Of a stretch of 64,000 bases of DNA, positions 54,103 through 59,730 are shown in pieces (the stretch's first letter is position 1; each line of letters starts with the position of its first letter). The DNA lies in assembly GCA_002402045.2 (NCBI GenBank), contig NVUX02000074.1, positions 1 through 64,000 of the forward strand, given 5' to 3'. The position numbers were made by a program, and so were the translations under genes. The DNA comes from Paracoccaceae bacterium. GTDB taxonomy: Bacteria; Pseudomonadota; Alphaproteobacteria; Rhodobacterales; Rhodobacteraceae. The notes under the pieces were generated by a model, which saw only the letters and a list, made by a program, of their open reading frames with translations, was not told the DNA's origin and searched no databases.

Positions 54103-57100
54103 CTAATCACGCTCCAATATGAACTGGCTTTCTAGCTGGTCGTAGTAGTGGTTATGAAAGTGCATGGCATTGGCTGTTGTCGGTACGCCCGCTGCGAGTA
54201 ATATACGGCCAGCGGCAGATTCGTTTTCGCCATTCACTGCGTGTAAAAGGTTTCCGATCTCCTTATATTCTTCAGATTTGTTGGTTTTGAACCATGGGCC
54301 AATATCGGACCGCCAGCTCGCGTTCTCGCGTGCTGCATCGGCCCGCAGAGGTGCCGTAATTTCGCTCGCGACCCGCACATCTTCATCATCCATCGCACTG
54401 TCAATTTCGGTTGCGGCAGCTTCTGCCATAACTTTTCCGGTGGAAAGAACCGCAGCAGCAATAGATCCACCGAGCGGAATGATACCTATCCAGGCCCCGG
54501 CGACGTCGACAACATAGTTGTTCCGCCTAATCTCGGTTTGGAAGCCCCGCTCCGCGTTTACGCGGTCTCGAATAAACCCTTCAAAGCGGTTAATCGCCGT
54601 CAAAAGCCCGCCGGTCACCGCCGTTTGTGCACTCTGCATTCTAATCTCGATAAACCCGTCTATTCTGCCATCTGACGCTTGGAAAACATCCCTCACCGCA
54701 AGCTCGGCTTCTTCTATCATATTCTGAAATTCACCAACGAGTTCAAGCGCTTCAAGGAATAGGTTATTACTGGCAGCCGTCTCCATTCGCCCACGGCAGC
54801 CCGCGAGCTCGGTCTCGTAATGGGCAACGGTCCCTGTATCATCCGGTTCATCCGGAAATATGTTCTCAGCTTGGCCAATTGAGAATGGGGCCTCACTTTC
54901 ATAGCTCGCCTTGGCGCTATCAATGGCCAAAATCTCTGATTCAAAGCTGCCGAGCATCTCACTTTCAGCATATGCCGCTGTACGCGCGGCGGCCCACTCG
55001 GCGCTTTGCTCGTTGCCAAGGCGCTCCGCGTCCTTCGCGTCGATCACAGCTTGGGATTCGTCAGCTTCAGGGTAGATGCAGGTGCGCATTTCAGTGAGCT
55101 TAGGATCAAGATCCAAAACCGACATTGTGTCGGTATAGCGCTTATAAAGATCCGCATTTTCCGCTTCCGGCTCAAAATCATCAAGCAGGCCTTTAAGCAC
55201 AGCTATCTCGCCAATGGCCGCGGCAAATTCCTCCGACAAAATGAGACCCTCAACGGCCCCCACCTTTTCAAGGACGATATCCGCTGCAGGCTGAATCTCG
55301 GTAAACTCGTTGCTCCGCACCGCCGCAATGCGCGACGAAAGTGCAAGGAAGTCGGCATTGGCCTGATCACGCCGCGCGATAATTTCGTCATGCTGGCGGT
55401 CAAGGTCCGCAAGCTCGGTTTCCCAAGCCAAGACCATATCAAGCGCGCCCTGAAAATCAGCAGCAACAGCCAGCGTATCGGCTTGGGGCAAGGCGTCAAT
55501 TATATCGCCCGCAGCCGTTGAAATAACGCTGATTTCCGCGGTGGCCAAGCGGTTGGCATGGCTGCCCATTGCGGCCACGGCTGATTCATATTGGCGCTTC
55601 AGTTCGGCCAAATCCCGGAGCACCTCCTCTATGCGGCCCATTTCCGTGATGGCCGTTCGAATGCTGTCCAGCGCGCCCTGATACTCACCACCATCAGCCA
55701 TGATTTGAATTGAATCCAGGTCCGTTTCCACTTGTCCGAGCGCGGATTCTGTATCGGCGCCGATGAGATCAGAACTGGATTGCCGAACACCGGAAAGCCG
55801 GTCTTCAACCAACTGCCGTTCGGCCTCATAAAGCCGGCGAATAACTTCGGTTTCAACATCCGCGTTAGACGAATTGGGGTCTTCCCCCATCTCGGCCGCC
55901 ACCTCTGCCCGTAGCTGATTTTCGCGCAAGAGCTGCTCAACGGTATCAAGCGCGGCAGCAATGCCCTCATTTGCATCATTTGCAGCAATGAAATCTTGGC
56001 TATCGGCAGCAATGGTCATTTGCTGAAGGCTGGCGTCAATCTGGTTTAGCTGCTGGGTTGCAGCTTCGTCCACATGCTCGTGGCTGCGGGCTTCGGCCGT
56101 GCGCCGGTCAAGGATCGGGCGCATGGCCTCGTAGGTGGATCTTTTCGCGGCAACTTGCGCTTCGTGCTGGGTCCACGGTGCCGAAATCTCGCCTTCCGCT
56201 TGCTCAAGTACCTCACTGGCGAGTGTAAGCTCGTCGGCGCTCACATGGCCTTGGATTTGGTTAACAAAGGTAGCGCCGTTAGCGCCCCAAGCATCATCCC
56301 AATCGCCTAATTCATCTACCTTGGCCTGAAAGTCAGCCCAACGCGAGGCACGGCGCTCCCATTCTTCTCGTTCAGCCGCAATGCGCGCCGCTTCTGCCTC
56401 GGCCTCAGAGGTCAGCCGGTCAACCTCGCTCTGAATGATATCAAGCTCATAATCAACCGAATCGATAACCCCTTGGGCCGTCATAAAATCGCAGGCTTCG
56501 ATTTGGCCGTCGATATCCGCAACGCTGGTGTTTACGTCGGTAAAGCGCGGCGTCAAATCCGGGAAGGTTTGCGCCATTGTCTCGGTTTCGGCAATTTTAC
56601 TGGTGAGCGCAGCGTAGCATTCACCGGTCACACGCTTGGCTTCTATCAGACGTTCAATCTCGTTTTCCACGCTGGCAAGCTCGGTGCTTCCCATGCGCAG
56701 AAGCGACAGCGCCTCCACAAAATCACGCTCAGCCGTTGGCGCGGCCGAAGATATCAGGTTTGTGTCAATTTGATTGAGGCCAGTGGTGGTTAATTCATTA
56801 GAAACCTCCTCCGCGCGATAAACCTCTACACGCTCTTCAATAACGGCAAGCTCAGAGTCATAAAGTTCCTTGGCCGCAAATTGCAGACGGTACTCCACCA
56901 TCATCGGGGCCAAAGAGCCGTGTGCGGTGCCATAAGCATCTATGGCATTGCGATAACGCTGGTCTTCTGCCGCTGTTTCCATTTCTGAAACCGTGCCGTT
57001 AATGGGGGAAAGGCCAGTATCGCCCCAATCGGCTAGGGTCGAAATATCCCCGAGTAAATTGCCGACATCCGTGCTCAGACCATTCCATTCATTGGCGTTG

Positions 57101-57309
57101 GCGTCAAATTCGTCTTGCCGGTCCTGCGTTAGTCGCCGCAACTCTGTCAGCTGTCGGCGGATGCTTACAATCTCGGTGTATTCTTCATCATTTTCGTCAA
57201 CAACACCATCATCAGCACGGGCTTCCGCTTCTAGGCGGTCCAGGCTCCTTTGGTTGGTTGTAATGCCGTTATTGCCGCGTTCGATCAATTCGAGAAGTGG
57301 GTTACTCAT
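54103..57309 (-). CDS. Large helical-repeat protein with a C-terminal hydrophobic segment (1068 aa)
   Basis: I do not recognise a family. The protein is acidic, almost wholly helical and repetitive. An aromatic-x-x-Ala anchor recurs at residues 119, 197, 275, 361 (Leu), 440, 543, 619, 695, 772 and 851, as in RDFVEAL, ADFQGAL, EEFAAAI and AEWAAAR. Spacings are 78, 78, 86, 79, 103, 76, 76, 77 and 79. A second element, K-x2-x-Tyr-like (AKRSTYE, LKRQYES, AKASYES), follows most anchors by about 31 residues. Residues 933-962 are a glycine-rich hydrophobic stretch (VVDVAGAWIGIIPLGGSIAA), and the last ~100 residues are polar and end in HFHNHYYDQLESQF. No signal peptide is visible. GGGGACTGAAATT precedes the ATG. 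It lies 18 nt after the partner gene. Confidence 0.85.
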   Translation of the reverse strand: MSNPLLELIERGNNGITTNQRSLDRLEAEARADDGVVDENDEEYTEIVSIRRQLTELRRLTQDRQDEFDANANEWNGLSTDVGNLLGDISTLADWGDTGLSPINGTVSEMETAAEDQRYRNAIDAYGTAHGSLAPMMVEYRLQFAAKELYDSELAVIEERVEVYRAEEVSNELTTTGLNQIDTNLISSAAPTAERDFVEALSLLRMGSTELASVENEIERLIEAKRVTGECYAALTSKIAETETMAQTFPDLTPRFTDVNTSVADIDGQIEACDFMTAQGVIDSVDYELDIIQSEVDRLTSEAEAEAARIAAEREEWERRASRWADFQAKVDELGDWDDAWGANGATFVNQIQGHVSADELTLASEVLEQAEGEISAPWTQHEAQVAAKRSTYEAMRPILDRRTAEARSHEHVDEAATQQLNQIDASLQQMTIAADSQDFIAANDANEGIAAALDTVEQLLRENQLRAEVAAEMGEDPNSSNADVETEVIRRLYEAERQLVEDRLSGVRQSSSDLIGADTESALGQVETDLDSIQIMADGGEYQGALDSIRTAITEMGRIEEVLRDLAELKRQYESAVAAMGSHANRLATAEISVISTAAGDIIDALPQADTLAVAADFQGALDMVLAWETELADLDRQHDEIIARRDQANADFLALSSRIAAVRSNEFTEIQPAADIVLEKVGAVEGLILSEEFAAAIGEIAVLKGLLDDFEPEAENADLYKRYTDTMSVLDLDPKLTEMRTCIYPEADESQAVIDAKDAERLGNEQSAEWAAARTAAYAESEMLGSFESEILAIDSAKASYESEAPFSIGQAENIFPDEPDDTGTVAHYETELAGCRGRMETAASNNLFLEALELVGEFQNMIEEAELAVRDVFQASDGRIDGFIEIRMQSAQTAVTGGLLTAINRFEGFIRDRVNAERGFQTEIRRNNYVVDVAGAWIGIIPLGGSIAAAVLSTGKVMAEAAATEIDSAMDDEDVRVASEITAPLRADAARENASWRSDIGPWFKTNKSEEYKEIGNLLHAVNGENESAAGRILLAAGVPTTANAMHFHNHYYDQLESQFILERD

Positions 57310-57327
57310 AATTTCAGTCCCCTTTTG

Positions 57328-58698
57328 TTATTGCTGCATTTCTTTGAATAAGGATGCGATACGAGTGCGCATTTGCTTCAATTGCTTAAGCCGGCCGCCC
57401 TTGGCTTGCACATTCGCATCGGCGCTTTGGTTGCTCTCAGAAGCCTGAGCAACCATAGGCTCTAAAATATCCATGATTTTCTGGCTTTTCGCCAAATCAC
57501 CACCCTTGATCGCTTTGGCAAACCCTTTGGCGAGCATACCCACTTTCTTGACACTGTCTTTGTCACCCGATTTCAAGGCGGTCTTTATTTGCGGGGTTAG
57601 CGTTTTGAAGGCATCAACAAGGCGGCTGCGGTCGTCACCCGCGCTTTCCGAAGCGCTTGCGTCTTCGCTATCGTCATTCTCTGTCGCAGATGTTTCCGCC
57701 TCAGCACTGCCGTCATCTTCCACGCCTAGCTCATCTTCCACGTCTGGCTCTTCATCCGTGCTTGCGTGCTCTCCGATCAATGCTTCCATCTGGTCAAGCT
57801 TTTCGCCAGAGCTATACCACTCGTTATTTTCAACCGCATACTCAAATTCGCGCTTAAATCTGGCGATGGCTGTGGCGGCCGTATCATCCGCGCCACTCAC
57901 AATCCTTGCGACATTCCGAGCCATAGCGCTCATGCGGTCCAAAAATGGCTGTTTCTCTGCCATTAACCCGTCATAATCATCCAAAACCGTTGTCACTTTG
58001 TCCAAGGCTTCGCCTGCGCGCTCAAAAAGCTCGTCATCCATGGCGCGGGTAAACAGGCCCATTGTGTCCTTTAGCCCGTCAATCATCAGGCTTGCTGTGT
58101 CGGCCAGCAGCGTATCGATGCGCGGCTGAAGCTCCTCCAGTCGTTCCTCTAGCGCCACACGAGGGTCAACCTCTTCGCCGCCGGCTGCTGCTTCTGCGTC
58201 GTCCTCCGGGGCGGCCCTGCCGCGTGCTGGCGCGCTTTCTTCTGCTGCCGCCTCAGGTGCAGGCGCGGCCGCTTCGGCCTCGGGTTCTGGTGCGGCGCGG
58301 CGCGTCGGCGCGGCGCTTTCTTCTTCGGCTGGGGCTTCCGCTGATGCGGCCGCATCTCCGTCCGGCTCTTTTAACTCTAGCCGGTTTTTAAGCCCGCGCT
58401 CGGAAAAAAACTTTTTTGCCACTTTGGGCAAGTTGCCGGGAATTTTATCATTGATCGGATCAATAATAATAACCTGGCCTTCCATAGTGATCGTGCCCCA
58501 AACCCCTTTGGCCATGCCGCCAGCCTTTTTGGCGGCTTTCACCAGCACCTCGGGTGATTTCTTAAGATGCACCTCCAAGACAATGCCGTCTTTGGACATT
58601 AGCATTGCACAATTATGCTGCTTTTTCTTAACCTTGGCCAAAACAGCCTTTAGCTCAACGCCTTCACTTTTTAACTCTGCAGGGCTTTTGTTCGCCAT
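57328..58698 (-). CDS. Modular partner protein: alpha/beta head, Ala/Pro/Glu linker, helical repeats (456 aa)
   Basis: This family is also unrecognised. From the ATG at 58698, residues 1-110 form a small basic alpha/beta-like domain (NCAMLMSKDGIVLEVHLKK, then GVWGTITMEGQVIIIDP). Residues 113-177 are an Ala/Pro/Glu linker with an internal duplication (EESA...RRAAPE and EESA...GRAAPE). Residues 178-311 are helical and contain DDELFERAGEALDKV, which matches the anchor of the repeats in the downstream protein. After an acidic Ser/Asp/Glu linker (312-356), the last 100 residues are basic and helical (KSGDKDSVKK and KGGDLAKSQK look like short repeat anchors). No signal peptide. It is first of the two-gene unit. 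Confidence 0.8.
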   Translation of the reverse strand: MANKSPAELKSEGVELKAVLAKVKKKQHNCAMLMSKDGIVLEVHLKKSPEVLVKAAKKAGGMAKGVWGTITMEGQVIIIDPINDKIPGNLPKVAKKFFSERGLKNRLELKEPDGDAAASAEAPAEEESAAPTRRAAPEPEAEAAAPAPEAAAEESAPARGRAAPEDDAEAAAGGEEVDPRVALEERLEELQPRIDTLLADTASLMIDGLKDTMGLFTRAMDDELFERAGEALDKVTTVLDDYDGLMAEKQPFLDRMSAMARNVARIVSGADDTAATAIARFKREFEYAVENNEWYSSGEKLDQMEALIGEHASTDEEPDVEDELGVEDDGSAEAETSATENDDSEDASASESAGDDRSRLVDAFKTLTPQIKTALKSGDKDSVKKVGMLAKGFAKAIKGGDLAKSQKIMDILEPMVAQASESNQSADANVQAKGGRLKQLKQMRTRIASLFKEMQQ

Positions 58699-58953
58699 AA
58701 TCAATTCCCATAAATAAAGGTTTCTCGGATATCTTGCGCACTAAAATAAGTGCATTTCCGGAGATAACCCTGCCATATTCGTAAAAAAAGGGGCGTTCTG
58801 TCAAGGGTTGAGTTGAACTTTGTGATTAATTCGCGCGCTGGGGTTGAATTGACGCCCTGTAAATCCCTTCTGCTTTTGGGGGCCGAAAAGGAATGTGTTT
58901 CCAAGGTCTGCGCTTAAATATAGCCCGCGGCACCGGATTTCTGGCAGCAATCG
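58699..58953 (-). other. 255-nt gap between the LytTR gene and the repeat-protein unit
   Basis: The gap holds the promoter at 58775-58804. Nothing else is convincing. A short frame at 58701-58904 has no ribosome-binding site and unremarkable residues. It is AT-rich near 58690-58830. Confidence 0.45.
58775..58804 (-). promoter_or_regulatory. Promoter of the repeat-protein unit
   Basis: On the minus strand TTGACA (58804-58799) is followed after 18 bp by GAATAT (58780-58775). The -35 is perfect and the -10 is weak, which suggests a need for an activator. It would give a leader of about 70 nt. Confidence 0.5.
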
Positions 58954-59730
58954 CTATGCCAAAACCTTGCGAACCGTTGGCCCATAAGTGCGGCTAATGG
59001 GCAGCAGCCTTGTGTCAACCAACTCCAGCATCAGCTTTCCGCTTTTCCGCCGCAGCTTGCGCGCGGCCTTTTTTGCCACCCAATGAGAGCGATGAATTTG
59101 CAGGCCATCTAGCCCCGCCAGCTCCTCGATCGCTTCACTTAACCCCAGCAATATCAGCGTTGAACCTTTGGTGGTGGTCACTTCGACATAATGATCCTGC
59201 GCAGACAGTGAAATGATGGCGGTTCCCAGCTCGGAGGGGAGCCGCGCAAAGAATGTCGGGGTGTGCTTGGGCAGCGTTTGCTCGGCCAACCCAAGGCGGG
59301 CCATCACCCGCAAATACATCAGCCCACCAATTAATGCGCAGACAAAAAATACGTTTATCATGATTGTGAAAGCGGGGGCATGTCCACGCAAGGTTCGCTC
59401 TGCCCACATTACGATAAGGCCAATGGGAATGCTCGCGAGCGATATCGCACATGCAACCCGCAAGGCGGCGGACCATTCATCAAAGCGCGGATGCATGAGC
59501 ACCAGCGAAAGCAGCGCCAGCACCACCCCCCAGCCAGACCCGATGCAAAGCAGCCAATAGAGCGCCCGATGCCCCACCGGCATTGCCGACGTTTCAAACG
59601 GGCCGAGAACCGTGAAGGCCAACCACGTGATCAGCAATGCGATAGATTGCTCGCGCCAGTGCCAAAATCTGAGCACGCGCTTGAAGCGGTTAAGGAATGT
59701 GTATTTCACGTAGGCAAACCTGCATTTCAC
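58954..59730 (-). CDS. Membrane-anchored LytTR-type transcription regulator
   Basis: The ~258-residue product has about four hydrophobic helices (between residues 28 and 145) and a C-terminal LytTR DNA-binding domain (AQDHYVEVTTTKGSTLILLG, then IHRSHWVAKKAARKLRRKSG). There is no receiver domain, so the membrane part probably senses or sequesters. The start is a GTG at 59730 or 59709. Both overlap a direct repeat that may be its own operator, so the true start is uncertain. It is divergent from a small membrane-protein gene. Confidence 0.83.
   Translation of the reverse strand: MKCRFAYVKYTFLNRFKRVLRFWHWREQSIALLITWLAFTVLGPFETSAMPVGHRALYWLLCIGSGWGVVLALLSLVLMHPRFDEWSAALRVACAISLASIPIGLIVMWAERTLRGHAPAFTIMINVFFVCALIGGLMYLRVMARLGLAEQTLPKHTPTFFARLPSELGTAIISLSAQDHYVEVTTTKGSTLILLGLSEAIEELAGLDGLQIHRSHWVAKKAARKLRRKSGKLMLELVDTRLLPISRTYGPTVRKVLA

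What the first reader, a model, noticed from the sequence alone, without database searches (positions are those of the whole stretch)
54103..57309. Unrecognised 1068-residue protein built from about ten ~78-residue helical repeats
An aromatic-x-x-Ala anchor recurs ten times (residues 119 to 851) with spacings of 76-79 for seven of nine intervals, and a Lys...Tyr element lies about 31 residues after most anchors. Repeats have diverged beyond obvious identity, so automatic annotation would give only 'hypothetical protein'. The regular period suggests a rod or solenoid of helical hairpins. I know no characterised protein with this layout. This is my main candidate for an undescribed system.
Basis: partly seen in the sequence, partly recalled or inferred. 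Interest (0 to 1): 0.75.

Follow-up and report, generated by a model that had tools for sequence, protein, structure and literature searches.

The report
Repeat-built candidate secretion-system cargo protein
A large uncharacterised bacterial protein made of roughly ten copies of a 76-residue helical unit sits beside a smaller docking-like protein, and relatives of both occur in bacteria that carry a particular type VI secretion system, so it is probably one of that system's undescribed payloads, though no secretion has been shown.

Summary
The 1068-aa ORF ("P1068") is real (dN 0.18, dS 1.37 against an orthologue), matches no Pfam or NCBIfam family above cut-off and no PDB chain, and carries about ten degenerate units with a 76-80-residue period. 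A 23%-identical homologue keeps the same 76-residue register. Structure prediction failed (two sequences, pLDDT 41), so "rod or solenoid" is untested beyond "mostly helix".

It is the second gene of a two-gene unit. The first gene ("P458") starts with a ~117-residue domain that the libraries searched do not know. In 292 genomes of the order the domain occurs in 22, all with type VI secretion (TssC in 80 of 292). In 15 of the 22 a copy lies 2.0-2.2 kb from TssC, divergent. Elsewhere it heads large proteins with variable C-termini, one an endolysin-like hydrolase (E 9e-24). P1068's own head plus repeats also heads proteins ending in HExxH-containing domains, again in domain-positive, TssC-positive genomes.

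Best reading (0.5): P1068 is an accessory cargo of the roseobacter TssCL-type T6SS and P458 its docking adaptor, by analogy with RIX adaptors. Secretion, toxicity and an immunity gene are not shown.

The parts
54103..57309 (-). P1068: 1068-aa protein with head, repeats and C-terminal region
   Evidence: ORF; orthologues 73% and 71% identical in G007/L003 and G003, diverged one in G009; dN 0.178, dS 1.365
56983..57309 (-). P1068 head, residues 1-109, shared with proteins of other genera that have other C-termini
   Evidence: alignment A8; search of 292 genomes
54682..56982 (-). P1068 repeat array, residues 110-876, about ten units of ~76 residues, two of them weak and partial
54106..54681 (-). 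P1068 C-terminal region, residues 877-1068; contains a hydrophobic, glycine-rich stretch around residues 935-960 (by eye); no recognised domain
57310..57327 (-). 18-nt gap between P458 stop and P1068 start with a GGGG stretch that may be a ribosome-binding site
57328..58704 (-). P458: proposed adaptor, 458 aa from TTG or 456 aa from the ATG at 58698
   Evidence: ORF; same gene order in the four genomes with P1068
58345..58698 (-). N-domain of P458 (~117 residues), the T6SS-linked domain
   Evidence: alignment A5; surveys
57331..58344 (-). P458 acidic linkers and helical modules; the last ~110 residues resemble modules in other N-domain proteins

Best explanation
P1068 is an accessory cargo protein (effector or effector carrier) of the roseobacter TssCL-type type VI secretion system. 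P458, encoded 18 nt upstream, would dock on the injected apparatus (Hcp or VgrG) through its N-domain and take P1068 with it through helical contacts. The repeats would form an elongated helical scaffold that spaces or presents the C-terminal ~190 residues, which would act in the recipient, perhaps at a membrane. Shown by sequence: the repeat, the two-gene unit, the two undescribed N-terminal modules, and their co-occurrence and (for the N-domain) physical linkage with T6SS genes. Inferred: docking, secretion, P458-P1068 contact, the fold, and any activity of the C-terminus.
For: Same 292 genomes of the order: TssC in 80, N-domain in 22, all 22 among the 80; P 4e-14 by genome, 9e-7 by genus, not corrected for phylogeny. 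Head profile in 3 of 292 (G000, G280, G365), all three N-domain- and TssC-positive. N-domain gene 2.0-2.2 kb from the TssC match and divergent in 15 of the 22 (places; gaps). In 50 chosen genomes, 22 of 23 N-domain-positive ones have a second PF05943 match in a frame over 1000 aa, 0 of 27 negatives do; in G000 that frame is VipA plus VipB, as in published TssCL. N-domain proteins have variable C-termini: endolysin-like (L051, PDB E 8.9e-24), HExxH-containing, papain-like by eye. Head/repeat proteins too: HExxH in L092, L093, L094. The pair is kept in 4 of 4 genomes with P1068, and a head/repeat gene is next to an N-domain gene in G412 as well. P1068 is patchy: absent from G001, G002, G004 and G011, which have TssC.
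Against: No secretion, binding or toxicity data. P1068's C-terminus has no recognised domain. No immunity-like gene: no minus-strand ORF of 80 aa or more between 53467 and 54102, and in L003 and L039 the next gene is a HAD-like phosphatase by eye. At 3 of 8 head/repeat loci (L092, L093, L094) and at 4 of 4 short head proteins no N-domain gene is near. In G412 the pair is divergent, not an operon. In-cluster N-domain proteins read in full show no toxin, which also fits a structural role. P1068's array did not align with the helical spacers of the N-domain metallopeptidase-like proteins (hhalign E 0.13). G099 has the N-domain and TssC but no long second PF05943 frame. The 50-genome set was largely chosen from earlier hits.
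Confidence: 0.5

Rival explanations
1. P458 and P1068 are accessory structural or assembly factors of the TssCL T6SS (sheath, tube, membrane scaffold or chaperone) and are not injected.
For: Many N-domain genes sit beside tssC (20 genomes at 2.0-2.2 kb), and those read in full have helical C-termini without a recognised toxin. TssCL machines carry unusual extra parts.
Against: P1068 is absent from four same-genus genomes with TssC and lies on another contig than the T6SS of G000 (C37 against C53). Both modules head variable, enzyme-like C-termini elsewhere.
Confidence: 0.2
2. P1068 works inside its own cell, for example as a coiled-coil scaffold of the EzrA or SMC-accessory kind, and the T6SS link is indirect (shared lineages or gene pool).
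For: Sub-threshold similarity to EzrA (E 9.5e-5), JetC (E 0.005), an SbcC-like subunit (E 0.011) and tropomyosin. No correction for phylogeny was made; the N-domain is nearly confined to one order in the samples.
Against: All those matches are weak and generic. The association also holds by genus, and the fixed position of N-domain genes beside tssC is physical, not only statistical.
Confidence: 0.15
3. P458 and P1068 are exported by another machine (an extracellular contractile injection system or a type I or IV system) that tends to occur in the same genomes.
For: Only TssC was surveyed; no marker of another secretion machine was tested here.
Against: The fixed gene position beside tssC points to T6SS for the N-domain family.
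Confidence: 0.1

Closest known systems
RIX-domain T6SS effectors and secreted adaptors (PMC10435454; outline with abstract and Results sections 7 and 9 read)
   Same: An N-terminal domain shared by proteins with different C-termini, in genomes with a T6SS; short members without a toxin that carry the effector encoded by the next gene
   Different: RIX is a ~55-residue arginine-rich domain of Vibrionaceae and Moritellaceae, not encoded in T6SS clusters; the N-domain here is ~117 residues, found in Rhodobacteraceae-like genomes, and often encoded beside tssC. RIX secretion was shown by experiment; nothing here was
TssCL-type T6SS of roseobacters (PMC9515649; passages read)
   Same: G000 has VipA plus VipB in one 1470-aa protein next to VgrG, besides normal TssB and TssC
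   Different: In the passages read, the paper predicts effectors by similarity to known ones and describes neither the N-domain nor the head/repeat family
WHIX-domain T6SS effectors (PMC12135965; search listing with start of abstract only)
   Same: A domain sufficient for T6SS export carried by effectors with different toxic domains
   Different: No sequence comparison with WHIX was made here
EzrA and other long coiled-coil proteins
   Same: Long, acidic, mostly helical; weak local similarity
   Different: Below Pfam's cut-off (21.3 against 39.6 bits); P1068 has a 76-residue period and a head shared with enzyme-bearing proteins

Membership tests
T6SS cargo effector or secreted adaptor | Secreted in a T6SS-dependent way | not testable with these tools
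T6SS cargo effector or secreted adaptor | Genetic association with T6SS | tested here: met
   22 of 22 N-domain genomes among 80 TssC genomes of 292; head profile 3 of 3; gene position beside tssC. No phylogenetic correction
T6SS cargo effector or secreted adaptor | Module carried by variable C-terminal toxin-like domains | tested here: met
   Endolysin-like L051; HExxH proteins. Only L051 has strong library support; the rest are motif or by-eye readings
T6SS cargo effector or secreted adaptor | Recognisable toxin activity in P1068 itself | tested here: not met
   C-terminal 189 residues: no Pfam match at E 1, no PDB match at E 5
T6SS antibacterial effector | Cognate immunity gene next to it | tested here: not met
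   No minus-strand ORF of 80 aa or more between P1068 and the next gene; the RIX paper reports none beside anti-eukaryotic effectors, so this bears on antibacterial activity only
RIX-domain proteins | N-terminal ~55-residue arginine-rich motif of two helices | not tested
   No RIX profile was searched; lengths and host range differ
TssCL-type T6SS in the window's genome | VipA and VipB domains in one long protein besides tssB and tssC | tested here: met
   L071:5387-9799 with VipA 9-157 and VipB 1073-1357; separate TssB and TssC in L070
EzrA (PF06160) | Score above Pfam's gathering cut-off | tested here: not met
   21.3 bits against 39.6

The most novel reading that the evidence does not exclude
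Roseobacter TssCL secretion systems use their own targeting code: a ~117-residue docking domain, encoded beside tssC and copied onto dispersed toxins and stand-alone adaptors, plus a second module of a helical head and 76-residue repeats. P458 and P1068 would be a split effector in which adaptor and rod-shaped cargo are separate chains, the repeat number setting the reach of the C-terminal domain.
Probability: 0.3. Interest if true: 0.8.

Novelty: new variant of a known kind. Interest (0 to 1): 0.6.

Why it matters
The one paper that my searches found on TssCL says that, as of 2022, no function had been described for the T6SS of its squid symbionts or of reference roseobacter genomes. The two profiles (N-domain and head/repeat) give candidate cargo lists for this machine, and P458-P1068 offers a testable adaptor-cargo pair with an unusual long repeat protein as payload.

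Tried and rejected
Library scans of P1068 gave only weak matches: Pfam EzrA and NCBIfam Rad50 below cut-off, PADLOC JetC2 E 0.005, PHROGs E 0.011, PDB none at E 1. P1068 and P458 against plasmids: no match; the same for an N-domain protein and a head/repeat protein of other genomes. The genome-contig scan gave one locus, L003. AlphaFold2 with two sequences was uninformative for P1068 (pLDDT 41) and P458 (50), so I ran no fold search. N-domain profile against PDB: nothing better than E 0.42. The weak P1068 match in G000:C99 overlaps a 515-aa ORF that looks like a phosphate permease by eye; the one in G007:C221 was not opened. G021's repeat hit is an SbcC-like ATPase by eye. That P1068's array equals the helical spacer of the N-domain metallopeptidase-like proteins was not supported (hhalign E 0.13).

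By-eye readings without a library match above cut-off: papain-like proteins (L048, L052, L078, L079), M15-like ends (L044, with PF08291 at E 0.0027, below cut-off; L099, no match), HExxH proteins (L049, L056, L077, L080, L092-L094), the shared C-terminus of L101, L102 and L103.

Limits: the repeat HMM was iterated on its own targets; one search is the test that was not, although its source is a homologue. The C-terminal module was built from six proteins including P458, L041 and L042; proteins outside that set matched more weakly (L047 1e-11, L044 2e-9, L052 3e-7, L053 4e-5, L045 1e-4). The 50-genome set was mostly chosen from earlier hits. In some searches at most 15 first-look candidates per genome were scored, so N-domain copies may be missed. 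No survey is corrected for phylogeny. TssCL was confirmed by domain content in G000 only; elsewhere by frame length. The N-domain was not sought in G001, G002, G004, G011 and G012.

Full report
WHAT IS THERE. The ORF at 54103-57309 (-) encodes 1068 residues. It is conserved coding sequence: against L003 (WTAL01000261, a Rhodobacteraceae MAG; the matching G007 contig has the same length, 15915 bases) the three codon positions differ by 18, 14 and 49%, dN 0.178, dS 1.365 over 997 codons. Upstream on the same strand, 18 nt away, lies a 458-aa ORF, with a GGGG stretch before the P1068 start. P1068 is found in 4 of 101 relatives, all of the same genus: G000, G003, G007 and G009. In 4 of 4 a P458-like gene precedes it. 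The genes around the window's pair differ from those around L003 and L039.

THE REPEAT. Thirteen aromatic-x-x-Ala matches give six pairs at 76-79, which none of 20000 shuffles reached. Of 26 matches in the G009 homologue, 23% identical, seven lie in steps of 75-76. An HMM from those seven units alone finds five units in the window protein at domain E 0.04 or better and two weaker ones (E 0.64 and 1.7); the protein scores 31.4 bits, its reverse 12.2, shuffles at most 4.6. hhalign of the profile against itself gives offset 76-78 over 465 columns, E 3e-9. The unit consensus has the aromatic-x-x-Ala anchor and Lys-x-x-Tyr, Tyr about 31 residues after the aromatic. About ten units fit, two of them weak and partial, with one long interval of 103. 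The AlphaFold model has pLDDT 41 and is mostly helix; I draw no fold from it.

THE PARTNER. P458 begins with a domain of about 117 residues. P458 matches no Pfam or NCBIfam family above cut-off and nothing convincing in PADLOC or PHROGs. A profile of 22 such domains from 19 proteins (A5) was searched in several sets. In 292 genomes of the order 22 have it, all 22 among the 80 with TssC; P 4e-14 by genome and 9e-7 by genus, without phylogenetic correction. In 289 genomes of the class 2 have it, G000 and G099; in 185 of the phylum only G000. In 50 chosen genomes 23 have the domain and all 23 have TssC, against 5 of 27 without it; 22 of the 23 also have a second PF05943 match in a frame over 1000 aa, against 0 of the 27; the exception is G099. 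In G000 that long protein is VipA plus VipB, next to VgrG, which matches the published TssCL (PMC9515649, passages read).

POSITION. In 15 of the 22 domain-positive survey genomes an N-domain gene lies 2.0-2.2 kb from the TssC match, each time divergent (places). Over both sets one search lists 20 such genomes and two more at about 8 kb. In G000, whose only N-domain match is P458, the divergent ORF next to tssA and tssB carries an M15 peptidase domain (E 1.6e-11). The in-cluster N-domain proteins that I read, L082, L084 and L085, have helical stretches and no recognised toxin.

VARIABLE C-TERMINI. Elsewhere the N-domain heads large proteins, the longest read being 1877 aa. L051 ends in an endolysin-like hydrolase (PDB E 8.9e-24). 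L049, L056, L077 and L080 contain HExxH; L048, L052, L078 and L079 look papain-like by eye. After L080's gene comes a CpXC protein (E 2.4e-20). Short N-domain proteins without an evident toxin, L041 and L042, share a C-terminal helical module with P458 (they were part of the model).

P1068 RELATIVES. A profile of 25 repeat units (A6) hit 8 of 53 genomes: the four with P1068, then G412, G365, G280, and G021, whose hit is an SbcC-like protein and a false positive. G412 has a 1302-aa head/repeat ORF whose start is 74 nt from a divergent N-domain gene, or 218 nt from the more likely ATG, and an 823-aa one with HEVGH. G365 and G280 have 718- and 1366-aa ones with HEVGH and HEVAH. The head profile (A8) hit 3 of 292 genomes, G000, G280 and G365, all domain- and TssC-positive. 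It also found four short head proteins: L103 in G000 itself, L101 and L102, which share its C-terminal domain by eye, and L099, whose end looks M15-like by eye without library support. An N-domain gene is adjacent at 5 of 8 head/repeat loci and at 0 of 4 short ones. The five adjacent ones are those whose repeat protein has no evident enzyme.

READING. Two undescribed N-terminal modules travel with one T6SS type, sit on variable C-termini, and meet in the P458-P1068 unit. The RIX paper shows by experiment that a short marker protein can deliver the cargo encoded by the next gene (PMC10435454, abstract and sections 7 and 9 read). By that analogy P458 is an adaptor and P1068 its cargo. P1068 is absent from G001, G002, G004 and G011, which have TssC, as expected of cargo and not of a core part. 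Against it: no secretion data, no immunity-like gene, no recognisable activity in the P1068 C-terminus, head/repeat proteins that lack an N-domain neighbour, and toxin-free N-domain proteins inside the clusters. A structural role remains possible.

LITERATURE. Seven searches (the last found nothing) returned no paper whose listing describes these modules. The library holds only open-licence PMC papers, and I read parts of two.

Noticed in passing
L071:5387-9799 (G000:C53:29287-33699): TssB-TssC fusion (TssCL) of 1470 aa with a long acidic linker of repeated DLLADMA-like units (by eye) between VipA and VipB.
   Followed up: partly
L071:4552-5385 (G000:C53): A 277-aa ion-channel protein (PF00520, E 2e-43) encoded between the ClpV region and TssCL in the T6SS cluster.
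   Followed up: no
58954-59730: LytTR DNA-binding protein (E 1e-11) with predicted membrane stretches by eye, the next same-strand gene upstream of P458; a possible regulator.
   Followed up: no
L103:1477-3012 (G000:C32): A second head-domain protein (511 aa) in the window's own genome, with a C-terminal domain shared by L101 and L102.
   Followed up: partly
L080:2349-3047 and L077:2239-2937: CpXC-domain gene directly after the N-domain HExxH protein in two genomes; a candidate immunity or chaperone gene.
   Followed up: partly
L003:1543-4947 and L039:2615-5848: LanM-like lanthipeptide synthetase (by eye) upstream of the P458-P1068 orthologues in two genomes but not in the window.
   Followed up: no
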